From positions 1-26,415 of the IMG/VR virus record IMGVR_UViG_3300046010_003007: a stretch of DNA of 26,415 bases. One strand, 5' to 3'. Below are positions 5,111-21,164 of the stretch, one piece after another. The position numbers were made by a program, and so were the translations under genes. The notes below the pieces were generated by a model. The model did not search any database. It was given only the letters and a program-made list of their open reading frames with translations, and had not been told where the DNA came from. Within the stretch, counting starts at the first letter, position 1. Each line of letters opens with the position of its first letter. This DNA comes from a virus.

Positions 5111-6022
5111 GTGGCGAATACATTTTTGAAGCCAGAGGTTATTAACCGGACGGCGCTGAAGCTGCTGGAGCGCGAGGTTGTTGTGCCCCGCGTCGTGTGG
5201 AATTACGCCGACGCGGAGTTCCGCGGCGCGAAGAACGACACGGTGACCCTGCGTCTCCCTGCCGTCGCGACGTCGCGCGAGTACGACTTCCGCAACAACC
5301 GGTCGAGCCCGATCGTTGTCGATGACCTGACCGAGACTTCGGTCCCGGTGGTTCTCGACCACGACATCTACCACGCTGCGGCGATCACCGATGAGCAGCT
5401 CACGCTGGACATCGTTGACTTCGCCGAGCAGGTGCTGACCCCGCAGGTCAAGGGCATCGCCCGCGGTCTGGAGGATCTGATCGTCTCCGTGATGGAGACT
5501 GCCACCTACGGCACCACCATCAGCATCGCTGACTCCGGTGATGACCTGTGGCAGACGCTGGTGCAGGCCCGTCAGGCACTGAACGACGCCAACGTGCCTC
5601 GCGAGGGACGCATCCTTCTCGTCGGTTCCGACGTGGAGACGGAGATGCTGCTGGACGACAAGTTCAACCGCGTCGACTCGTCCGGTGACGGCATCGCCAC
5701 CACCGCGCTGCGCGAGGCCACCATCGCCCGCCTTGCCGGTTTCACCATCGTTGGCTCCAACGCCCTCGACCCCGAGACGGCGATCGCGTACCACCCGACG
5801 GCGTTCGCGTTTGTCAACGTCGCGCCGGTCGTGCCCGACGGTGTCACCTACGGGTCGCGCCTGTCGGACATGGGTCTGGCGATGCGCTGGATTCGCGACT
5901 ACGACGCGCTGTACCTGCGTGACCGTTCCGTCGTGTCCAGCTTCGCTGGTTGCACCTCCGTCGAGGACAACGGCTCCACCAACGTCCGCGCGGTGAAGAT
6001 CAACTTCAACGGCGCTTCCTGA
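5111..6022 (+). CDS. Major capsid protein
   Basis: This 303-aa protein is the main shell subunit, expected to have the HK97 fold. The opening ANTFLKPEVINRTALKLLER and the following VVVPRVVWNYADAEF..G...TV.LR.P resemble P22-type coat proteins that are common in actinophages. It follows the scaffold gene and precedes the head-tail adaptor. It is preceded by a strong Shine-Dalgarno sequence within a hairpin. Codon use is more biased than in its neighbours, with many ACC, ATC, GCC, TCC and CTG codons and fewer TCG, GCG and TTG, as expected for the most abundant virion protein. There is no N-terminal delta domain or visible protease, which fits a separate scaffold. Confidence 0.92.
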   Translation: MANTFLKPEVINRTALKLLEREVVVPRVVWNYADAEFRGAKNDTVTLRLPAVATSREYDFRNNRSSPIVVDDLTETSVPVVLDHDIYHAAAITDEQLTLDIVDFAEQVLTPQVKGIARGLEDLIVSVMETATYGTTISIADSGDDLWQTLVQARQALNDANVPREGRILLVGSDVETEMLLDDKFNRVDSSGDGIATTALREATIARLAGFTIVGSNALDPETAIAYHPTAFAFVNVAPVVPDGVTYGSRLSDMGLAMRWIRDYDALYLRDRSVVSSFAGCTSVEDNGSTNVRAVKINFNGAS

Positions 6023-6483
6023 TGAGTTTGCCCGCGCTCGCGTCACTCAACGATCTGCTGCCCCTAGTCGGCAGCGTGAACGATGATGACCGGGCGCGGG
6101 CACTGCTCGCCTACGCGTCGGCCCTGATCCGCACCGAAGCCGGAGAGGACTGGGTCGACACCGACGGCAACCTTGACGGTGTCCCTGACATCATCCGAAT
6201 GATCTGCTGCAAGGTCGTTGAACGATCGTTGCAGAACCCGATGGGGCTGACCGCAGAATCGGTCGTGAACTATCGGGCTGAGTACGGAAACTCGTCATCC
6301 GATCTGTATTTGACGAAGCAGGAACGGCGGCTGGTGCGTAAGGCCGCTGGCAGCGTGCTGATCGGTTCGGTCGAACTGCAAACCCCGTACCGCAAATACG
6401 ACGCCGACGACGTCTACATGACGGTCGACAACGGCGGCGAAGAACTGCCGATGGGCCCGTGGCCGCAACCATCGGACGGGTAG
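6022..6483 (+). CDS. Head-to-tail adaptor
   Basis: A 153-aa protein of the HK97 gp6 / SPP1 gp15-type connector family, which forms a ring beneath the portal. Features typical of the family are an N-terminal helical segment (ASLNDLLPLVG..NDDDRARALLAYASALIR), a central VP.IIRMICCKVVERSLQNPMG helix and a C-terminal strand region ending in acidic residues. I start it at ATG 6022, which overlaps the capsid TGA by one base; an in-frame upstream extension would run inside the capsid gene. No clear Shine-Dalgarno sequence is seen, so it probably depends on coupling. Its end overlaps the first glycosyltransferase gene by 25 bases. Confidence 0.87.
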   Translation: MSLPALASLNDLLPLVGSVNDDDRARALLAYASALIRTEAGEDWVDTDGNLDGVPDIIRMICCKVVERSLQNPMGLTAESVVNYRAEYGNSSSDLYLTKQERRLVRKAAGSVLIGSVELQTPYRKYDADDVYMTVDNGGEELPMGPWPQPSDG

Positions 6484-7121
6484 CGATTATCGTCCCCATG
6501 TTGGGACGGCCACATACGGTTGCGCCGCTGGTCGAGTCGATTAAGGCGACGACGCCCGACCCCCACATCATTTTCGGTTGCACTGCTGGTGACGCCGATG
6601 TGATTAAAGAGGTCGCCGGGTTTGATTACTTTGAGGTTGGCGGGCCGATGCCGGGCGATTATGCCCGCAAGATCAACATGGGTTACAAGCTGACCGACGA
6701 ACCGTTGTTGTTCACGGGTGCGTGTGACATCCGGTTCCTTCCCGGCTGGTTTGAGGCTGCCACAGCGCGTCTCGACGGGACAGTCGGTGTCGTCGGAACG
6801 AACGATCTTGGTTCTAAGCGTGTGATGGCCGGTGACCATTCGACGCACTCGCTGGTCACCCGAGAGTACGTCGACAAGTTCGGCACGATTGACGAGCCGG
6901 GTGTGGTTCTCCATGAGGGCTACCACCATGAGTTCGTGGACGACGAGTTCGTTCAGACAGCGATGTTCCGTGGCATGTGGGCATTCGCCGAGGATTCGCA
7001 TGTCGAGCATCTTCATCCGAACTGGAATAAGGCGCCGTCCGATCGGCTGTATCGGATGCAACGCAGAAGGATGCGTCTCGGTAAGCGGGTCTACGCCGAA
7101 AGGAAGCACCTGTGGACGTGA
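6459..7121 (+). CDS. GT-A fold glycosyltransferase-like protein 1
   Basis: A 220-aa protein that looks like a short family-2-type glycosyltransferase, a soluble enzyme moving a sugar from a nucleotide-sugar donor. The N-terminal VAIIVPMLGRP..VAPLVESI is a typical Rossmann-like start. C89-D90-I91-R92, followed by FLPGWF, lies where the metal-binding DxD motif is expected but reads DIR. HHEFVDDEF at 156-164 is a likely catalytic or acceptor region, and HVEHLHP follows. GTG 6459 lies inside the end of the adaptor gene. It is the first of five such genes in a row. The sugar, the acceptor and activity itself are unknown; the altered DxD could mean an inactive or unusual enzyme. Confidence 0.75.
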   Translation: MAATIGRVAIIVPMLGRPHTVAPLVESIKATTPDPHIIFGCTAGDADVIKEVAGFDYFEVGGPMPGDYARKINMGYKLTDEPLLFTGACDIRFLPGWFEAATARLDGTVGVVGTNDLGSKRVMAGDHSTHSLVTREYVDKFGTIDEPGVVLHEGYHHEFVDDEFVQTAMFRGMWAFAEDSHVEHLHPNWNKAPSDRLYRMQRRRMRLGKRVYAERKHLWT

Positions 7122-7717
7122 CGGTTGCTGTAGCCACATTCGGTGGCGACCAGTGGCCTCGTCTGGCCGCTGAACGCGCTGTGCCATCCGCTGAAGCTCT
7201 GGGTGTCCCGGTGGTGACCTGTCACGCCGACACGCTTCACGACGCCCGTAACGGTGCGCTGGCGCAGGTTGAGACTGAGTGGGTGTGCCACTTGGACGCC
7301 GACGACGAACTAGAGGCCGGTTACTTCGACGCGATGGCCGCGGGGACCGCGGATGTGCGGGCTCCGTCTGTGCGGTATGTGCGTCAGCACCGGCTCCGAG
7401 AGCCCGGTATGCCCGCTGTTGCGGGTCACACCCATCAGTGTGTGGCCGAGTGTCTGGTCGACGGGAACTGGCTGGTCGTCGGTTCGCTGGTCCGCGCCGA
7501 TCTTGTTCGTAAGGTTGGCGGGTGGCGCGATTTCGACTGGTCTGAGGACTGGGATCTGTGGCTGCGCTGCCACCTCGCCGGGGCTTCCTTTGAGGCGATC
7601 CCAGAGGCCGTCTACCGGGCGCATGTCCGTCCTGACTCCCGTAACCGCGGGGCGTCACGCGAGAAGCGTCTGGCGGCACACAAGGCGATCGCATCAGCGA
7701 ACGGACTCGCAGCATGA
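7112..7717 (+). CDS. Family 2-like glycosyltransferase 2
   Basis: A 201-aa protein with clear GT-A hallmarks: TVAVATFGG at the N-terminus, ARNGAL at residues 45-50 (a common nucleotide-binding element), the metal-binding LDADDE around 61-66, and SEDWDLWLR at 144-152, which matches the catalytic ED motif of family 2 enzymes. It probably transfers one sugar to a protein or glycan acceptor in the cytoplasm. GTG 7112 has AAAGGAAG just upstream and overlaps the previous gene by ten bases; GTG 7118 would give a four-base overlap and is also possible. No membrane segment is present. Confidence 0.85.
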   Translation: MDVTVAVATFGGDQWPRLAAERAVPSAEALGVPVVTCHADTLHDARNGALAQVETEWVCHLDADDELEAGYFDAMAAGTADVRAPSVRYVRQHRLREPGMPAVAGHTHQCVAECLVDGNWLVVGSLVRADLVRKVGGWRDFDWSEDWDLWLRCHLAGASFEAIPEAVYRAHVRPDSRNRGASREKRLAAHKAIASANGLAA

Positions 7718-8373
7718 TCCTGTTGGTGATGACCGACGGTCGCCTTGACTGCATTGACCAGACGATCGAATCGGCCCGCGAGAACCTGTTGGGCCAGATC
7801 ACCTACAAAGTGATCCATGACGACACGGGCGACGAAGCACACCGCGACTACCTGCGCGGAGCGTTCCCCGATTTCGAAGTGATCGGTCAGCCAACCCGTC
7901 AAGGGTTCGGTGGGGCGATCCGGTCGGCGTGGACACATCTTCGCCGCCGCACCGAAAAGTTCGTGTTCCATCTGGAAGATGACTTCACGTTCAACGAGCC
8001 TCTGCCGCTCTACCTCATGGAACGGGTGTTGGACCGGAACCCGTCGCTGGTGCAGTTGGCGTTGCGACGGCAGCCGTGGAACGACGCCGAGCGTGCCGCA
8101 GGCGGAATCATTGAGCAACACCCCGACGATTACACCGACTGCTCCGACGGCATCAGCGAATGGTTGGAACATCGCCGGTTTTTCACGACGAACCCGTCGG
8201 TGTACCGGACGACGTTGATCGCGAAGGGTTGGCCTGAGGGCGACCATTCGGAAGGCGTGTTCGGGATCAAGTTGTGTGAGAACCCGGCGACGAGGTTCGG
8301 CTACTGGGGTCGGCGCACTGATCCTCCGAAGGTTCATCACATCGGCGATCACAGAGCTGGGACGGGGTACTGA
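7714..8373 (+). CDS. Glycosyltransferase-like protein 3
   Basis: A 219-aa GT-A-like protein. The N-terminus MILLVMTDGRLDCIDQTIES and the RQGFGGAIRSAW segment (62-73) match the nucleotide-sugar binding half. HLEDDFTF with EDD at 88-90 corresponds to the DxD metal site, and the following NEPLPLYLMERVL helix is typical. FFTTNPSVYR and the final GYWGRRTDPPKVHHIG form the probable acceptor side. It starts with an ATGA overlap on the previous gene and ends in a one-base overlap with the next, so the five enzymes are probably co-translated. Donor and acceptor cannot be deduced. Confidence 0.82.
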   Translation: MILLVMTDGRLDCIDQTIESARENLLGQITYKVIHDDTGDEAHRDYLRGAFPDFEVIGQPTRQGFGGAIRSAWTHLRRRTEKFVFHLEDDFTFNEPLPLYLMERVLDRNPSLVQLALRRQPWNDAERAAGGIIEQHPDDYTDCSDGISEWLEHRRFFTTNPSVYRTTLIAKGWPEGDHSEGVFGIKLCENPATRFGYWGRRTDPPKVHHIGDHRAGTGY

Positions 8374-9128
8374 TGATTACAGCAGCCGTGTCGATGGTGC
8401 GCGACGAGGCCGACATCATCGAAACGACCGTCAGGCACATGCTGACGCAGGTTGATGTGGTCATCGTTGCGGACAACCGCAGCGTGGACGGCACCCGCGA
8501 GATCCTTGACGGCCTGCCGGTGCATGTGATTGACGACCCTGAGCGCGGCTATTTCCAGTCGGAAAAGATGACCCGGCTAGCGCACCTTGCCCGCCTTGAA
8601 CATCATGCCGACTGGATCGTCCCGTTTGACGCCGACGAGTGGTGGTTCCACCCCGACGGGCGTATCGGCGACGTGCTGGAAACGGTGGAGCATTGGCCGG
8701 TCGTGACCGCCGAGCTGTACGACCATGTGGCGACGGGTGATGACCCTCCGGGGTTGTCTCCGGTCGCGGCGATGTCGTGGCGTCGGATACAGCCTGCGGC
8801 GTTGCCGAAGGTTGCGTGCCGCACCGCTCCCGATCTGGTGATCCATCAGGGCAATCATGGGGCGAACTACACCGACCCGCATCCAGAGACTTCAGGGTTG
8901 CAGGTTCGGCATTTCCCGTACCGGTCGCCTGAGCAGTTTGCTCGCAAGGCGATCAACGGTGCCGAGGCTTACGCAGCGACCGATCTTCCTGAGGACATGG
9001 GGAAGCATTGGCGTGACTACGGTGCGCTCGCCGCTGCGAACGGTGAAGAGGCGTTGCATGACGTGTTTCGCGACTGGTTCTGGGTGGCGACTCCGACACC
9101 GGATCTGGTGTTCGACCCTGTCCTGTGA
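8373..9128 (+). CDS. Family 2-like glycosyltransferase 4
   Basis: This 251-aa protein resembles the Glyco_tranf_2_4 group. VRDEADIIE (9-17) and DNRSVDGT (34-41) are the characteristic N-terminal motifs, and PFDADEWW (84-91) is the DxD metal-binding element. HQGNH (near residue 158) and a later basic helix probably belong to the acceptor side. It is the clearest member of the group and the largest of the five. The ATG overlaps the previous TGA by one base. Similar proteins in bacteria act in cell-surface glycan synthesis, but here the gene lies among head-tail connector genes, which points to a virion role. Confidence 0.87.
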   Translation: MITAAVSMVRDEADIIETTVRHMLTQVDVVIVADNRSVDGTREILDGLPVHVIDDPERGYFQSEKMTRLAHLARLEHHADWIVPFDADEWWFHPDGRIGDVLETVEHWPVVTAELYDHVATGDDPPGLSPVAAMSWRRIQPAALPKVACRTAPDLVIHQGNHGANYTDPHPETSGLQVRHFPYRSPEQFARKAINGAEAYAATDLPEDMGKHWRDYGALAAANGEEALHDVFRDWFWVATPTPDLVFDPVL

Positions 9129-9799
9129 TTTCGGTCATTGTCCCGTGGCAGCCGGGGTGCGAGTTCCGGGAACGCAACTGGCAGTATCTCCGCCCGTTGT
9201 GGGAACGGTTCGGTGAAGTCATCGAAGGTGTCTGCACCGGCCCGTGGTCGAAAGGGACGGCGGTACGAGACGGGCTCGACAGGGCGTCGGGCGACAAGGT
9301 CATTGTCGCTGATGCCGATGTGTGGGTTGATCCCACCGGGGCGTTGGAAGCGGACACTCCGTGGGCGGTCCCGCACCTAAAAGTGCATCGCCTGTCTGAT
9401 TGTGCAACGGTCAGAATGATCGGCGGGGAACCGTGGCGTGGCCTGCCGTTGGATCGCAGCAACAATCGTGACTGCAAGCCGTACAACGGGCAGTGCGCTG
9501 GCGGTGTCGTCGTGCTGAACCGGGCTGTGATTGAGGCGTGCATGCCTGACCCGCGGTTCGTTGGGTGGGGGCATGAGGATGTGGCGTGGGACGCCGCTCT
9601 GACATCGCTGTACGGCCTCCCGTGGCGAGGAAACGCCGACCTTGTCCACCTGTGGCACCCATCCCAGCCACGCCTTGACAGGGCCACAGGGTCGCTTGCG
9701 AGCAAGCACCTGATGCGCCGCTACCTGAACGCGGCACGCCGACCTGATCTGATCCGCGGAATTCTGATGGAGGTGTCGTGGGAATCGAATCGTTCCTGA
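9125..9799 (+). CDS. Glycosyltransferase 5 (galactosyltransferase-like C-terminus)
   Basis: A 224-aa protein. VISVIVPWQPG starts a GT-A fold, VADADVWVDP (61-70) is the DxD metal site, and FVGWGHEDVAW (145-155) closely resembles the WGWGxED motif of the galactosyltransferase C-terminal domain family that also includes polypeptide GalNAc-transferases. HLWHPSQP (175-182) fits the metal-binding histidine that follows in that family. The GTG start has a GTGA overlap with the previous gene. Its end overlaps the head closure gene by 22 bases, so the cassette joins the morphogenesis operon without a gap. The motif suggests hexose or N-acetylhexosamine transfer, as an inference. Confidence 0.85.
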   Translation: MISVIVPWQPGCEFRERNWQYLRPLWERFGEVIEGVCTGPWSKGTAVRDGLDRASGDKVIVADADVWVDPTGALEADTPWAVPHLKVHRLSDCATVRMIGGEPWRGLPLDRSNNRDCKPYNGQCAGGVVVLNRAVIEACMPDPRFVGWGHEDVAWDAALTSLYGLPWRGNADLVHLWHPSQPRLDRATGSLASKHLMRRYLNAARRPDLIRGILMEVSWESNRS

Positions 9800-10113
9800 T
9801 CCACGATGTCACCATTGTTCGACCAGCGACCACAACCGGCAGAGGGTCGGATGTGGTGAAGGACTGGGCTAACGCCACCGAAACCGCCGCTACCGGGTGG
9901 GTCGCCCAAATGACCAACAGCGATGTTCGCGACACCCGTTCCGGTGACGTATCCGAATGGGTGCTGCAAACAGCAGCCACAACCGACATTGCCCCCGGCG
10001 ACCGTGTGGTGTGGGGCGTCATGCTGTTCGATGTTGTCGGCCACCCGAACCCGGCGTGGACGCCGCGAGGCGAGCATCACACCGAAGCACGGTTACGGCT
10101 GGTGGAGGGCTGA
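9778..10113 (+). CDS. Head closure (stopper) protein
   Basis: A 111-aa small beta-rich protein with the pattern of actinophage head-tail stoppers: F.IHDVTIVRP at the start, a central GWVAQ, and PGDRVVWGVMLFDVVGHPNP.WTPRG..HHTEARLRLVEG at the end. It should plug the connector after packaging and join the tail. GTG 9778 has GGAGG (9769-9773) four bases upstream, slightly short but strong. The five glycosyltransferase genes separate it from the adaptor, which in most siphophages is its direct neighbour. Confidence 0.85.
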   Translation: MGIESFLIHDVTIVRPATTTGRGSDVVKDWANATETAATGWVAQMTNSDVRDTRSGDVSEWVLQTAATTDIAPGDRVVWGVMLFDVVGHPNPAWTPRGEHHTEARLRLVEG

Positions 10114-10807: not shown

Positions 10808-10935
10808 CAAAGATCAAACGCCCCATAGGGGTGCTTGAAAGACCGTCCCGATGGCGGTCGAGAAGTCCCACGCCGCAAGAGACACCCCTATCCGTCGCGT
10901 CTTTGAGCGCATGACGGCTGACCTTGGAGGTCAAA
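10808..10935 (+). promoter_or_regulatory. Structured leader of the tail tube gene
   Basis: This 128-base gap can fold as nested hairpins. ATAGGGGTG (10825-10833) pairs perfectly with CACCCCTAT (10883-10891). Inside it, GACCGTC (10841-10847) pairs with GGCGGTC (10853-10859), including one G-T wobble. CCCC at 10821-10824 could instead pair with GGGG at 10828-10831, giving a competing fold. The Shine-Dalgarno hairpin at 10919-10933 follows. No open reading frame, T-run or good promoter is seen. It probably acts as a 5' stabilising or regulatory RNA for an abundant protein, as an inference. Confidence 0.5.
10919..10933 (+). promoter_or_regulatory. Ribosome-binding hairpin of the tail tube gene
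   Basis: TGACCT-TGG-AGGTCA is a perfect six-base-pair inverted repeat enclosing the Shine-Dalgarno GGAGGT (10926-10931), with GTG 10936 three bases after the hairpin. It differs from the core of the capsid element by a single base in the loop (TGG for AGG). Sharing between the two most abundant virion proteins suggests a common control of translation start or message stability. Confidence 0.6.
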
Positions 10936-11511
10936 GTGGCTGGAACTGTTGAAAACGTCCGCATTTGGACAAGCGCGGATGTTTACACCGCACCGGAGGG
11001 CACTACCCTCCCGACCAACATCGCTTCGGCGCTCAATGGAGCGTTTGATGCGGTTGGTTACATCTCTCAGGATGACGCTATTTCGCTGGAATGGTCAAGT
11101 GATGATACTGACCATTACGCTTACGGTTCTGTTTACATCCGTAAGACCAGCATTAAGGCAAAGCAGACCTTGAACTTCACTGCTTTGGAAGATTCGGACA
11201 TCGTGTTCCAGTTGGCTTACCCCGGCTCGGATTCGGCTACCGCTACGGGTATCACCACCCGTACCGTGCGCCCGAAGAACCTTGGCCTTGCTGTGGTCGC
11301 GATGGTTGTGGAGCTGACCGACGGTGACATCACGAAGCGCATCGCTATCCCGCGCGCTCAGGTGACCATCGCTGGTTCGGCGTCGCTGTCCGATAACGAG
11401 ATGGCTGGCGTCCCGATGGTTGTGGACATGCTCGGCGCGACCGACAACAACGACGAGACGTACTTCTCCATTGAGATCACTGACGATCCCGGCGCTATCG
11501 CTCCGTCCTGA
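10936..11511 (+). CDS. Major tail (tube) protein
   Basis: A 191-aa protein that should stack as hexamers to form the tail tube. It matches actinophage tail tube proteins: AGTVENVRIWTSADVYTAPEG at the start, GAFDAVGYISQDDAISLEWS, IRKTSIKAKQTLNFTALEDS, and the late KRIAIPRAQVT segment. I chose GTG 10936 because the Shine-Dalgarno GGAGGT ends five bases upstream; TTG 10924 in the same frame would put it inside the gene. The first half uses unusually many T-ending codons (GCT, GGT, GTT, ATT, ACT) compared with neighbours. It sits alone between a structured leader and a terminator-like hairpin, suggesting separately tuned expression. Confidence 0.9.
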   Translation: MAGTVENVRIWTSADVYTAPEGTTLPTNIASALNGAFDAVGYISQDDAISLEWSSDDTDHYAYGSVYIRKTSIKAKQTLNFTALEDSDIVFQLAYPGSDSATATGITTRTVRPKNLGLAVVAMVVELTDGDITKRIAIPRAQVTIAGSASLSDNEMAGVPMVVDMLGATDNNDETYFSIEITDDPGAIAPS

Positions 11512-11607: not shown

Positions 11608-11916
11608 ATGAGTGAAGTGCCGAAGCTGCGTCTGTCAGAGGTGCGCGAGCGCCTGATTGATAAGGGCGCGATCGAAGTCGTGTTGGACGACGACTCCGTT
11701 CTGCGGATCGACCCCCCCGAGTTGTGGTCCGATAAGTGCCGTCAGATTCTCGTTGACCCGACCAAGAACGACGTTGATCTTGGCCGTGAGATGATGGGCA
11801 AGGCGAACTGGGACAAGTTTGTTGCTGGCGGCGGAACCGGCGCATTGTTCGCTCACCTTCTCCAAGAGCGGTACCAGTTGACCAAGGGGGAATCGGAAGC
11901 CTCCTCGACTTCCTAG
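11608..11916 (+). CDS. Tail assembly chaperone, short form
   Basis: The zero-frame product, 102 aa, corresponds to the lambda gpG-type chaperone that coats the tape measure while the tube assembles. SEVPKLRLSEVRERLIDKGAIEVVLDDDSVLRIDPPELW and NDVDLGREMMG.ANWDKFVAGGGTGALFAHLLQERYQLTKGESE are typical of actinophage chaperones. It ends in a Ser/Thr-rich tail just after the slippery sequence. Its position, between tail tube and tape measure, is the standard one. The Shine-Dalgarno sequence is weak (GAAAGTGAG), and the start lies right after a repeat complementary to the upstream terminator loop. Confidence 0.9.
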   Translation: MSEVPKLRLSEVRERLIDKGAIEVVLDDDSVLRIDPPELWSDKCRQILVDPTKNDVDLGREMMGKANWDKFVAGGGTGALFAHLLQERYQLTKGESEASSTS

Positions 11917-12302
11917 GACGGTACGAGGGGGCTTTAGAGTCCGACCTGTTGAGGTTCTGGAATCTGGACTTGCACTGCGACCTAGGGACCGACCGGTTGT
12001 CGTGGCGTCGGCTCGGTGTCCTGATCGCGAACCTGCCGCCTGAATCGGCGACGGTGCGTGAGATTGTCGGTGCCGAGTACGGGTCGTGGACAACAACAGA
12101 CTTTTTGTTGGCCGGTGTGATTGACGTTCTGAATGGGGCGAACTGGCAGCGCGGTGGCGGTAAAGGCTCTAGGCCGAAACCGCTCCCGCGTCCGAAGTCG
12201 CTTGCCCAGTTGGAACGTGAACGTGTGGATCGTGAACGTAACGAAGCGCGGGTACGCGCGTTGCGCGAGCAACGGAAAGAGGTGACTGGTGGCGACAGGT
12301 AA
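11608..12302 (+). CDS. Tail assembly chaperone, long form (-1 frameshift)
   Basis: The extended chaperone of about 231 aa is made when ribosomes slip back one base near 11886-11892 and continue in the frame that ends at 12302. Read from 11889, the -1 frame gives GIGSLLDFLGRYEGALES and then DLLRFWNLDLHCDLG, the conserved beginning of actinophage gpT-like parts, with a basic, highly charged C-terminus (LAQLERERVDRERNEARVRA). The -1 part begins well upstream of its first ATG (11949), so it is not a separate gene with its own start. It overlaps the tape measure start by 14 bases. Confidence 0.88.
11886..11892 (+). other. Programmed -1 frameshift site
   Basis: The heptamer GGGGGAA is read in the zero frame as G-GGG-GAA and permits slippage of the P-site tRNA from GGG to GGG. 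A small inverted repeat, GGAAG (11895-11899) and CTTCC (11909-11913), starts three bases later and might act as a stimulator. The zero frame meets TAG at 11914-11916 while the -1 frame stays open to 12302. A frameshift at this location is conserved in nearly all siphophages. Confidence 0.8.
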
Positions 12303-15300
12303 CGATCTTGCAGTCGCTTATGTCCAGTTGCTGCCCAGCTTCGATAAGTTCTACGCGCGGTTGCGTGCCGAGGCAGGCCAGAACGCGTCGAAGTTTGAGA
12401 AGTTCGGCGCTGACGCCGGTAAGTCATGGTCGAAGGGGTTTGCGGCGAACGCGCAGGCCACCCCTACGGCGACAGGCGCCGCCCCTACCGGGGGCGGCGC
12501 CTCTGCCGCGTCCGAAGGGTCGTCGGCTGCTACAGCGATCGCTGCTGGGGCCGGGGCCGAGTTCGGTTCGATCGAAGCGGCTGCTGCCGCTTCGGGTGTT
12601 GCCAGTGGCGCTGCGTTCGCGAAGGGGTTTACTTCTGCTGGCGCTGGTCTGTCGGCTGTTGGTACGGGCCTGACCGCTGGTGTCACAATCCCGTTGGCCG
12701 CGGTCGGTGTGCTGTCGGCGAAGGCCGCGATCGACTTTGAAACAGCGTTCGCTGGTGTCCGTAAGACTGTCGATGCGACAGAGGCAGAGTTCGCACAGTT
12801 GTCTGCTGGTATCCGAGAGTTGGCAACCGGCGCTCCGATCCCAGTCGAGGGCATCGCCCGGATCGTTGAACTCGGAGGCCAGCTCGGTATTCCCAATGAC
12901 CAGTTGTTGTCGTTCGCTGACACCGTCACCCGGTTGAGCGTGTCGCTGGAAGGGCTCGACCCGGAGACTGCTGCGCTTCAGATCGCCCAGTTCTCAGCGA
13001 TCACCGGGATGCCAGCGGATGAGATTGATAACTTCGGTGCCGCGCTGACCGACCTTGGCAACAACTTTGCTACGACTGAAGGTCCGATCCTCCAGTTCGC
13101 TCTTAGGCTTGCTGGTCAGGGCAAGATCATCGGTCTGACAACCGAAGAAATCCTTGCTTTCTCGACGGCGTTGGCGTCGGTCGGCATCATGCCAGAGGCT
13201 GGCGGCACAGCGTTCTCACGGGTGTTCCAGCGGATCAATGACGCTGTCGGCACCGGCTCGGCAGAGTTGGAAACGTTCTCAGCGATAGCCGGTATGACTT
13301 CGCAGAAGTTCACCGAGCTGTTCGACAACAAGCCATTTGAAGCAATCAACGCGTTCACGATCGGGCTCGGCAAGCTGAGTTCGGAAGCGGCCACAACGAC
13401 CCCCATTCTGGAAGAACTGGGGTTGGCTGATGTCCGCGTCAAGGACGGTGTCCAGCGTCTCGCTGGTAGCCAAGATCAGCTCGGCAAGGCATACGACGTG
13501 TCGGCCCGTGCGATCAAAGAGAACACAGCGCTGATCGAAGAATCAGAAAAGCGTTACGCAACGACCGCGTCTCAGGTTGAGATTGCGAAGAACCGGCTGA
13601 ACGATGTCGGGATTGAGTTGGGCAACTCAATCACCCCCGCTCTGGCCGATCTGCTGGAAGCAGCGAAGCCGCTGATTGACGGTGTCGGCGTGTTGGCCGA
13701 AGCGTTCGGCAAGTTGCCGCAGCCTGTGCAGACCGCTGCGATCGCGACGGGCGTTCTGGCTGCTTCGGTTGGTCCGCTGTCGGCGTTTGCTGGTCTGTTG
13801 TCGACCGCTGTCGGCGGTGCGATCACCGCGCTGGTCGGGTTCACTTCGTCGGCTGGTGCTGCGGCTGTCGCAGCGACAACGACGGCGAGTTCTACGGCGA
13901 CGATGTCGACAAGCATGGCGCTCGCGACCACCACTACTGAGACGACCGCTGTGGCTCTTACAGCTACTGGGGCTGCTGGTCGCGCTGCTGGCGTCGGCAT
14001 GTCCGCTGCTGGTGCAGCGGCAAGGGCTGTGAAGTGGGCGTCGATCGCGGCTGGTGTCGCCCTTGTGGCCGACGCACTTTTTGATGTCGCGACGGGTGCC
14101 CCGGACGCGAAGGCCGCTCTGGACGAATTGTTGACGATTGATGCGGGTGCGTCGATCACGCAGCAGCTCGACAAGCTCGGTGCCGCTGGCAACGCAAAGA
14201 GTAAGGAAGGGCTGTTCGGGTTTATCAACAGTCTTGCCGACCCGGTCAACGACGTTGATCTTGGCGGCGGCGTCACTGCTTCCATCAAGGATTTGCAGCG
14301 CGGCCTTCAGGAACTGATTAGCGCCGGGGAGTTTGAGCAGGCCGAGCAGCAGATTGAGAACCTGCGTTCGGTGATCGACCGTCCCGCCAATCAGGAAGGC
14401 GGGATCTTCGGCGAAGCACCAGCAGCGGAGATTGAGACGACGGTTGAGCAATACACAAACGCGTTGGAACTGGCCCGTGCGAGCGAAGAACGGGCCGGTG
14501 CAGCGGCCGACGAGGCTGCTGCCGATGTCGGAGCGTTCGGGGGCGCGCTGGACGGTGCTTCGATCGGCGCCGCCGAATTCGTAAAGCAACTGAAGTTGGC
14601 TCAGGTGTCAGGCAAGTTGGCGTCGGTCGGGATCGACGCCGCGGCTGCTGCGGCGGAGCGTTACCTGACAGCGGTCGAGAACGCTGGTGCGGCCGACGAC
14701 CAGCTTGCCGCTGGGATCGGGTTCTCGCAGACGTTGCGCGAAGCACGGGAGAACGCGGGGCTACAGGAGTCCGAAGAGGACATCTCGTCGCGTGCGCGCA
14801 AGATCGCACAGGAACAGGATCGGATCGCCACGGAGATGCGCGACGCCGCGCTATCAACTGACGGTCTGACCGATGCCATTGACCGGTTGAACCCGGCGCT
14901 GCGGATCTTGGAGATTGAATCTGAGGCTGCTGCTGCGGCGGCAAACGGATTCCGCGAGTCGATCGAAAACTCTTCGTCCCTTGACGACACCATCGGCTCA
15001 ACCCTGTCACTCGGCGACGCTTACAAGACCGCCCGCAAGTCGATCAAGGGTTTGCCTGCCGATTTGGATTTGGCGGCGGTGTCGCTGGGCAAGCTGAAGC
15101 CACGTCAGCAGCGCGCCGTCGAAGGCATCCTCGCTCTCGGCGAAGCGACGACTGACTATCTCGCAACACTGATCGAATCAGGCAAGACCGATGCCGAGGT
15201 TCGTAACGAGGCGTCCCGGTTGCGCGACGAGTACGTCAAAACTTTCCGGCAGCTCGGGCTGAACGAGGATCAGATCAAGAAGTATCTCGACGCGATGGGG

Positions 15301-20259: not shown

Positions 20260-20448
20260 ATGGCGGACCCGTTTGTCGACTGGGGGCAACCCTATGACGA
20301 CGACGGGACGGACGACCTGTGGGAACTCCCGGAGTCGTTGCTGATCTCGTATCTGATGCGGGCTGCTGCTGGGGAGTCGGTCGACATGTTGTTGTTGGAG
20401 CTAGAAGCAAACGCGATCCATTGCGGGCATGACGGAGATGATGACTGA
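20260..20448 (+). CDS. Small acidic protein of unknown function
   Basis: A 62-aa strongly acidic protein (ADPFVDWGQPYDDDGTDDLWELPESLL at the start, HCGHDGDDD at the end). I start it at ATG 20260, one base after the previous stop codon; the in-frame ORF upstream lies inside the previous gene. Its stop overlaps the endolysin start by one base. A middle helix LISYLMRAAAGESVDMLLLELEA is the only structural element visible. Its place between the coiled-coil protein and the endolysin suggests a link with lysis, but no function is recognised. Confidence 0.6.
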   Translation: MADPFVDWGQPYDDDGTDDLWELPESLLISYLMRAAAGESVDMLLLELEANAIHCGHDGDDD

Positions 20449-21164
20449 TGGCTTACGCGGCGAATCTGCGGGGTTGGGGGCCGGGTTGGCCGACTGACCG
20501 GTCGGCCGACATGGCAACTGTCAGGGCGGCACGCTCTGGCGCCCGGTTCACCGTCCACCGCGACATCGCCCCGATCATCCGGTATCTGATTGACGAGGTG
20601 GAGCGTCGCGGGTTCCTGATCGACCACGGGCCAGCAGATGTGGATGACGACTGGAGCTACGCCAATCGTCCGATCCGCGGCCGTAACGCCCCGAGTAATC
20701 ATTCTTGGGGGTTAGCCATTGACGTCAATGCTCAGGACTTCCCTTTGGGTTCATCGAAGCGCCTGCCGCAGTGGATTGTTGACCTGTTCACCGATATGCA
20801 TTTCGAGTACGGCGGCGACTGGTCAGGCCGTAAAGACCCGATGCATTTTGAGTTTGCCGGGTCGCGTTCGCAGGCCCAATGGATTGTCGCTGCGCTGGCT
20901 GGTCACGCCCTGACAGGGACGAAACCTCTGGTGCCGACAACGGTGCCGCCACCAATCCCACTACTCCAAGCGGAGGACGATATGGACGCAATTCTGAGAT
21001 GCCCCGGCAAGGGTGTCATGCACATCGTGGGCGGGCTCGCCAACACCTTGGAAACGGCCGAGGTTCCGCTGGTCGAGCAGTCCTATGTGAAGCAGGGGTT
21101 GAAGGTCTACAAGGCTGACATCTCGTCGCGCCGCTGGGATCAGCTTGAACGACAGATGCGCTGA
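20448..21164 (+). CDS. Endolysin, M15-type peptidase
   Basis: A 238-aa peptidoglycan peptidase. Residues about 30-150 are an M15 (VanY / D-Ala-D-Ala carboxypeptidase or L-Ala-D-Glu peptidase-like) domain: SNHSWGLAIDVN supplies zinc ligands H85 and D92, and DPMHFEF supplies the catalytic acid D130 and zinc ligand H133. A proline-rich linker (about 160-172) leads to a small C-terminal domain (179-238) that probably binds the cell wall. ATG 20448 overlaps the previous stop; GGAG lies ten bases upstream. An internal ATG with a strong Shine-Dalgarno sequence lies at residue 179. There is no signal peptide, so a holin is needed for export. Confidence 0.88.
   Translation: MAYAANLRGWGPGWPTDRSADMATVRAARSGARFTVHRDIAPIIRYLIDEVERRGFLIDHGPADVDDDWSYANRPIRGRNAPSNHSWGLAIDVNAQDFPLGSSKRLPQWIVDLFTDMHFEYGGDWSGRKDPMHFEFAGSRSQAQWIVAALAGHALTGTKPLVPTTVPPPIPLLQAEDDMDAILRCPGKGVMHIVGGLANTLETAEVPLVEQSYVKQGLKVYKADISSRRWDQLERQMR
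20972..20984 (+). promoter_or_regulatory. Internal ribosome-binding site in the endolysin gene
   Basis: GGAGG (20972-20976) stands five bases before ATG 20982, which is in frame with the endolysin at residue 179. The start falls exactly after the proline-rich linker, so it would give the C-terminal domain alone (60 aa). Most genes in this window have weaker Shine-Dalgarno sequences than this one. Internal starts that yield free binding domains are known in other endolysins, such as enterococcal Lys170 and clostridial phage lysins. Confidence 0.6.
20982..21164 (+). CDS. Predicted free C-terminal domain of the endolysin
   Basis: If the internal start is used, a 60-aa protein is made that begins MDAILRCPGKGVMHIVGG and ends in the basic helix SSRRWDQLERQMR. 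It would contain the putative wall-binding domain without the peptidase. In other phages such fragments assemble with the full-length lysin into a multimer with one catalytic and several binding domains. The claim rests on the Shine-Dalgarno sequence, the spacing and the domain boundary. The domain family itself is not recognised. Confidence 0.45.
   Translation: MDAILRCPGKGVMHIVGGLANTLETAEVPLVEQSYVKQGLKVYKADISSRRWDQLERQMR

What the first reader, a model, noticed from the sequence alone, without database searches (positions are those of the whole stretch)
6459..9799. Five glycosyltransferase-like genes embedded in the head-tail connector operon
Five consecutive GT-A-type proteins (DIR, DADD, EDD, DADEW and DADV motifs) lie between the head-tail adaptor and the head closure gene, overlapping each other and both neighbours. 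Phage-encoded glycosylation of capsid and tail tube proteins has been reported in mycobacteriophages. Here the enzymes are translationally coupled to morphogenesis genes, which suggests a dedicated multi-sugar modification of the virion or connector. Five different enzymes could build an oligosaccharide stepwise. The last has a galactosyltransferase-like GWGHED motif.
Basis: partly seen in the sequence, partly recalled or inferred. Interest (0 to 1): 0.85.

Follow-up and report, generated by a model that had tools for sequence, protein, structure and literature searches.

The report
Conserved five-enzyme phage virion-glycosylation cassette
Five overlapping sugar-transferase genes sit among the genes that build this phage's head and tail, and the same five, in the same order, recur within the virion genes of dozens of otherwise unrelated uncultured phages, so they most likely coat the virus particle with a short sugar chain.

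Summary
Five + strand ORFs (6459-9799) overlap each other (10, 4, 1 and 4 nt) and both neighbours, a head-tail adaptor (25 nt) and a head-closure protein (22 nt). GT2-GT4 match glycosyltransferase profiles. GT1 and GT5 match poorly by sequence, but predicted models fold as GT-A enzymes; GT5 matches beta-1,4-galactosyltransferase and chondroitin polymerase.

The cassette is not peculiar to this phage. A GT1 profile found 351 relatives in IMG/VR. Among 73 non-redundant loci studied, 44 hold all five families, mostly in order 1-2-3-4-5, and 68 have recognised virion genes on at least one side. The insertion point shifts (before MCP, after MCP, after adaptor, after closure), and at least four MCP families occur beside it. 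GT proteins average 39-52% identity where virion proteins average 27-36%. Many copies carry methyltransferases or sugar epimerases.

Best explanation: a virion-glycosylation cassette inherited largely as a unit. The acceptor is unproven, and 'connector modification' specifically is not supported. Precedents exist: glycosylated mycobacteriophage capsids and tail tubes (Freeman 2023), and GT/methyltransferase genes between MCP and connector in cluster J phages (2013). The new part is the widespread five-gene cassette with conserved order.

The parts
6459..7121 (+). GT1: GT-A-fold glycosyltransferase, marker family of the cassette; DD motif degenerate to CD in this phage
   Evidence: phrog_14945 glycosyltransferase 2.6e-6, no Pfam match; AF2 model pLDDT 74.5, Foldseek best hits GT-A enzymes E 2.5e-7; 351 confirmed relatives in IMG/VR
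7112..7717 (+). GT2: GT2-family glycosyltransferase (LDADDE)
   Evidence: PF13632 3.9e-9, over its cut-off; alignment A5
7714..8373 (+). GT3: glycosyltransferase (EDDF), PHROG 'galactosyl transferase' family
   Evidence: phrog_3047 4.9e-13, PF00535 4.9e-4; homologues annotated as glycosyltransferases in Mycobacterium and Gordonia phages
8373..9128 (+). GT4: GT2-family glycosyltransferase (FDADEWW)
   Evidence: PF13704 5.9e-14, PF00535 3.5e-8
9125..9799 (+). GT5: GT-A enzyme with DADVW and GWGHED, beta-1,4-galactosyltransferase/chondroitin-polymerase-like
   Evidence: AF2 model pLDDT 90.9; Foldseek chondroitin synthase 3e-7, beta4GalT1 2e-6, K4CP 5e-6; PF00535 0.0055 only
6022..6483 (+). Ad1, head-tail adaptor; upstream neighbour overlapping GT1 by 25 nt
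   Evidence: phrog_137 4.7e-16; ATG at 6022 read from sequence
9778..10113 (+). Hc1, head closure protein; downstream neighbour overlapping GT5 by 22 nt
   Evidence: phrog_501 2.5e-14
5111..6022 (+). Major capsid protein (P22-coat-like, phrog_283); candidate acceptor
   Evidence: phrog_283 1.8e-61, PF11651 5e-19
10924..11511 (+). Major tail (tube) protein (phrog_117); candidate acceptor
   Evidence: phrog_117 3.4e-31

Best explanation
The five genes are a virion-glycosylation cassette read as part of the late head-tail operon. Soluble GT-A enzymes made together with the capsid and tail proteins use host sugar nucleotides to build a short oligosaccharide, probably one sugar per enzyme. It is O-linked to Ser/Thr of an abundant virion protein, most likely the major capsid or tail-tube protein. 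In some relatives added methyltransferases and sugar epimerases/dehydratases vary the sugars. The cassette is inherited largely as a unit and has moved between unrelated phages, staying inside the morphogenesis module. Shown: GT identity (fold or profile), overlap and operon layout, conserved order, recurrence, purifying selection, placement among virion genes. Inferred: protein acceptor, order of action, sugar identity, biological benefit (shielding, or altered adsorption or stability).
For: Family and fold evidence. Overlaps with both virion neighbours and no internal promoter-like or terminator-like site. 351 GT1 relatives in IMG/VR against only 5 loci in 84,980 bacterial and archaeal species, the three strongest on MAG contigs with phage genes beside them. 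73 non-redundant loci: exact string 12345 in 35, 44 with all five, GT1/GT2 overlap of exactly 10 nt in 37. 68 of 73 have a recognised virion gene on at least one side, 40 on both. At least 4 MCP families beside it. GT mean identity 39-52% against 27-36% for virion genes. GT distances correlate with each other (rho 0.18-0.58, all p<0.05) but little with portal or MTP. Inserts are mainly SAM methyltransferases and NAD-dependent sugar epimerases. In the 40-kb relative the only PF00535 matches are in the cassette. dN/dS 0.06-0.21. No membrane segment: maximum 19-residue hydropathy 1.2. Precedents: capsid and tail tube glycosylated by phage GTs, cluster O with three tandem GTs plus O-methyltransferase (Freeman 2023, doi 10.1016/j.chom.2023.05.028, known here through PMC11600133 and PMC11256854).
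Against: No glycan or acceptor has been observed. If the acceptor were one virion protein, closer co-evolution might be expected, yet the cassette sits beside unrelated MCPs, and MCP/MTP Ser+Thr content does not differ between cassette-bearing and other loci. GTs that glycosylate the capsid can lie elsewhere (Che8 has none in the connector region), so position alone does not prove the target.
Confidence: 0.7

Rival explanations
1. The enzymes modify a host envelope glycan (wall polymer, lipid-linked sugar) late in infection or in lysogens, blocking superinfection or sparing released virions from adsorbing to debris. A common host acceptor would explain why the GTs are more conserved than the virion proteins.
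For: GTs are shared by phages with unrelated capsids. Foldseek hits for GT1 and GT5 include wall- or O-antigen enzymes (RmlT, WrtF, TarP).
Against: Virion-gene placement in 68 of 73 loci, overlap with connector genes, no membrane segment, no flippase or O-antigen-type (gtrA/B) partner seen among the inserts annotated.
Confidence: 0.15
2. Connector-specific modification: the glycan is placed on Ad1, Hc1 or the neck.
For: Location in the window. Ad1 is richer in Ser+Thr in cassette-bearing loci (0.167 against 0.115, p 6e-8), without phylogenetic control.
Against: Insertion point varies across protease, MCP, Ad1 and Hc1 boundaries. Known precedents glycosylate MCP and tail tube.
Confidence: 0.05
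3. Passenger genes (morons) parked in the late operon with no virion role, or nonfunctional duplications.
For: The connector region tolerates insertions in other phages (cluster J, PMC3706429); one locus has an HNH endonuclease there.
Against: Conserved five-gene order, low dN/dS, conserved catalytic motifs, five distinct families rather than copies (profile comparison).
Confidence: 0.07
4. DNA hypermodification: the GTs glycosylate modified bases.
For: Multi-enzyme DNA glycosylation exists in other phages (own knowledge).
Against: No base-modification gene found among the window ORFs annotated; GT-A/GT2 and galactosyltransferase-like enzymes with methyltransferases and sugar epimerases fit glycan rather than base modification; the rest of the genome is not in hand.
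Confidence: 0.03

Closest known systems
Virion glycosylation of mycobacteriophages (Che8 cluster F1, cluster O; Freeman et al. 2023 Cell Host Microbe, doi 10.1016/j.chom.2023.05.028)
   Same: Phage-encoded GTs, in cluster O three in tandem with an O-methyltransferase, reported to modify capsid and tail tube.
   Different: Maravista (F1) GTs lie near the right end of the genome and Che8 has none in the capsid-connector region; the original paper was not held, so its data were not read here; no five-gene cassette with conserved order.
Cluster J mycobacteriophages (Omega, LittleE, Thibault): 8-10 gene insertion between MCP and head-tail connector (PMC3706429)
   Same: Several GTs and SAM methyltransferases inserted at the head-connector junction of siphophages.
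   Different: Only partly and weakly related: Thibault gp14~GT2 (3e-13), gp16~GT5 (6e-38), gp19~GT4 (8e-6), in another order; LittleE gp15~GT2 (4e-13), gp17~GT1 (5e-9), gp21~GT4 (4e-5); no GT3 match.
Caudovirales GX15bay (MK557849) GT cluster
   Same: Contains GT2-GT3-GT4 homologues in order (E 1e-64 to 1e-94) plus other GTs and a methyltransferase.
   Different: Located upstream of the terminase; lacks GT1 and GT5 matches.
Beta-1,4-galactosyltransferase / chondroitin polymerase (GT-A with GWGxED)
   Same: GT5 fold match and GWGHED motif.
   Different: About 15% identity; sugar and acceptor specificity not tested.

Membership tests
GT-A glycosyltransferase superfamily (GT1-GT5) | GT-A nucleotide-sugar-binding fold | tested here: met
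   GT2 and GT4 pass Pfam GT2-family cut-offs, GT3 passes only PHROG; GT1 and GT5 by predicted fold. The GT1 model is moderate (pLDDT 74.5).
GT-A glycosyltransferase superfamily (GT1-GT5) | DXD or equivalent metal/sugar motif conserved | tested here: met
   GT2 DADDE, GT4 DADE, GT5 DADVW, GT3 E-D-D-F conserved; GT1 has DD in distant relatives, CD in the window, so GT1 is only partly met.
GT-A glycosyltransferase superfamily (GT1-GT5) | Catalytic activity with a nucleotide sugar | not testable with these tools
   Needs enzymology.
Phage virion-glycosylation system (mycobacteriophage type) | Several phage GTs encoded together, often with a methyltransferase | tested here: met
   Five GTs; methyltransferase in the 78% relative L004 and in many others. 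None in the window itself.
Phage virion-glycosylation system (mycobacteriophage type) | Glycan covalently bound to capsid or tail tube protein | not testable with these tools
   Needs mass spectrometry.
Phage virion-glycosylation system (mycobacteriophage type) | GTs co-located with virion genes | tested here: met
   68 of 73 loci. Not a universal feature of the mycobacteriophage systems.
Cluster J MCP-connector GT insertion | Same insertion site (between MCP and connector) and homologous GTs in the same order | tested here: not met
   Window site is after Ad1; only a few distant homologues, in other order.
Host O-antigen or serotype-conversion (gtr) systems | Membrane GT plus flippase GtrA / bactoprenol GtrB | tested here: not met
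   No hydrophobic segment in the five proteins; no such partner gene among the neighbours annotated.

The most novel reading that the evidence does not exclude
A conserved, mobile five-enzyme glycan assembly line spread through hundreds of uncultured phages builds essentially one common oligosaccharide core on virions, whatever capsid family the phage has. The insertion site in the late operon is free as long as it stays in the morphogenesis module, and methyltransferases and epimerases supply lineage-specific decoration.
Probability: 0.4. Interest if true: 0.75.

Novelty: new variant of a known kind. Interest (0 to 1): 0.62.

Why it matters
Phage virions are usually thought of as unglycosylated, and the known exceptions come from a few cultured mycobacteriophages. 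A five-GT cassette with conserved order, spread across unrelated uncultured phages and nearly always next to virion genes, suggests that virion glycosylation is far more common. It also offers a compact, testable pathway in which the product of each enzyme could be read by mass spectrometry.

Tried and rejected
Searching cultured phages with the window's GT1 gave nothing; a more distant GT1 gave only weak 26-31% hits. Looking for an acceptor by co-variation: GT distances follow MCP better than MTP or portal over all loci, but within the subset that has this MCP family GT2 follows portal as well as MCP, so the test is not decisive. Ser+Thr content: no difference for MCP or MTP; higher for Ad1, TT and scaffold, judged confounded by lineage and left as a lead. 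Considered that the GT-family labels might cross-talk: profile comparison shows separate families except a moderate GT2/GT5 link (1e-8), while calls are typically 1e-40 or better. NC_004685 (Corndog) is not in the collection. Freeman 2023 full text is not held.

Full report
Setting. The window is a 26,415-base IMG/VR record, a fragment. Its order is small terminase ORF, TerL, portal, protease, scaffold, MCP, Ad1, GT1-GT5, Hc1, a ~95-aa gene, tail terminator, major tail protein, assembly chaperone, tape measure. MCP relatives in cultured phages infect Streptomyces, Mycobacterium, Arthrobacter and Gordonia, so an actinobacterial host is likely but not shown.

Observation. The five ORFs exist as described. 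Overlaps are 25, 10, 4, 1, 4 and 22 nt from Ad1 through Hc1, and no promoter-like or terminator-like site lies between 5900 and 10900 (the scan covers only sigma-70-type promoters). GT2 and GT4 pass Pfam glycosyltransferase cut-offs. GT3 matches phrog_3047 'galactosyl transferase' (5e-13) and PF00535 below cut-off. GT5 matches PF00535 only weakly, and GT1 matches only phrog_14945 (3e-6). AlphaFold2 models were therefore made from alignments of window and locus proteins. GT5 (pLDDT 90.9) matches chondroitin synthase, beta-1,4-galactosyltransferase 1 and K4 chondroitin polymerase (E 3e-7 to 5e-6). GT1 (pLDDT 74.5) matches bacterial and archaeal GT-A enzymes (E 2.5e-7), with 122 PDB chains at E<=0.001. 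GT1's first metal-motif Asp is Cys in the window and its closest relatives, while more distant relatives have DD.

Recurrence. Two near relatives carry the same five genes in the same place at 77-96% identity. One of them (L004) has an extra SAM methyltransferase between GT3 and GT4. dN/dS between window and relatives is 0.06-0.21 for the GTs, the same range as the virion genes. A GT1 profile scan of IMG/VR confirmed 351 relatives, of which the best 80 were fetched. The same profile found only 5 loci in 84,980 bacterial and archaeal species; three carry GT1 beside phage genes, and two are distant. GT1 is thus essentially a viral family.

Order. With profile HMMs built from these sequences, 91 loci (73 non-redundant at 97% GT1 identity) were mapped. 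The exact string GT1-GT2-GT3-GT4-GT5 occurs in 35, and 44 have all five, some with an extra GT1-like or GT5-like gene. Most others are cut by contig or locus ends. GT2 starts 10 nt before the end of GT1 in 37. HMM labels are not cross-talk: the five families are separate by profile comparison apart from a moderate GT2-GT5 link.

Place. In 68 of 73 loci a recognised virion gene lies upstream or downstream within the fetched stretch, on both sides in 40; five were unresolved. The exact place differs: after Ad1 (25), after MCP (20, in many of which the MCP itself is inferred from a gap of about 1 kb after the scaffold gene), after Hc1 (6), between protease and a phrog_777 MCP (9). On a GT1 tree these classes need at least 18 changes, but only a few are forced by well-supported branches, so the number of moves is uncertain. 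MCPs next to the cassette belong to at least four families: phrog_283, phrog_777, phrog_1650 and phrog_4523/133.

Unit inheritance. Mean identities are 39-52% for the GTs and 27-36% for virion proteins. Pairwise distances agree among the GTs (rho 0.18-0.58, all p<0.05) and within the head and tail blocks (0.71, 0.64), but hardly between GTs and portal or MTP. The cassette therefore behaves as a third, separately inherited module. Correlation with MCP is higher, but only in the 13-22 loci where MCP is of one family, and there portal does about as well for several GTs. The sample is the best 80 of 351 hits, so fractions may not hold for the rest.

Accessories. ORFs between the GTs are chiefly SAM methyltransferases (several families; one 10-locus family) and NAD-dependent sugar epimerases/dehydratases. 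One PIG-L deacetylase lies in a related slot. These are enzymes of glycan variation.

Function. The proposed mechanism is inference from anatomy. Likely late co-expression with virion proteins, soluble GT-A enzymes, sugar-modifying accessories and the reported glycosylation of mycobacteriophage capsids and tail tubes (Freeman 2023, cited through PMC11600133 and PMC11256854) make virion glycosylation the best reading. The acceptor is open. The finding that unrelated MCPs share the enzymes is a real argument for a common host acceptor, which is why that rival keeps 0.15. Enzymes acting after the first need to see only sugar, and protein O-glycosyltransferases often accept loose Ser/Thr segments (own knowledge), so sharing across capsids is also compatible with a protein target.

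Known and new. GTs and methyltransferases between MCP and connector were described in cluster J mycobacteriophages in 2013 (PMC3706429). They share only distant homologues of GT1, GT2, GT4 and GT5, in other order. GX15bay has GT2-GT3-GT4 outside the virion operon, upstream of the terminase. I found no description of the five-gene cassette in the papers searched, a search limited to open-licence full texts.

Noticed in passing
L102:9473-10486 and 12022-13035: Within the cassette of this phage are a polysaccharide-biosynthesis dehydratase (PF02719, 1e-89) and an NAD-dependent epimerase (PF01370, 1e-37), suggesting phage-made rare sugars.
   Followed up: partly
L041:10116-10781: A TOD1/MUCI70-like glycosyltransferase (PF04765, 4e-10) replaces GT2/GT3 between GT1 and GT5, with a methyltransferase after it: enzyme swapping inside the cassette.
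   Followed up: partly
L068:6965-10579: Related phage with other GTs plus a PIG-L deacetylase/methyltransferase fusion just after MCP, without GT1.
   Followed up: no
L053:8482-9144: ORF between MCP and adaptor with no Pfam match, in a phage whose other GT lies upstream of TerL.
   Followed up: no
Ad1 in cassette-bearing loci: Ad1 Ser+Thr content is higher in cassette-bearing than other loci (0.167 against 0.115, p 6e-8), not seen for MCP or MTP; phylogeny not controlled.
   Followed up: partly
window 6723-6728: GT1 metal-motif first Asp is Cys in the window, L003 and L004, while distant relatives keep DD; possible altered metal use or weakened activity.
   Followed up: no
window 11608-12302: Two adjacent tail-assembly-chaperone-type ORFs before the tape measure gene, the usual layout for a programmed frameshift.
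   Followed up: no
window 20448-21164: M15-type D-Ala-D-Ala carboxypeptidase domain (PF13539, 5e-12), likely endolysin.
   Followed up: no
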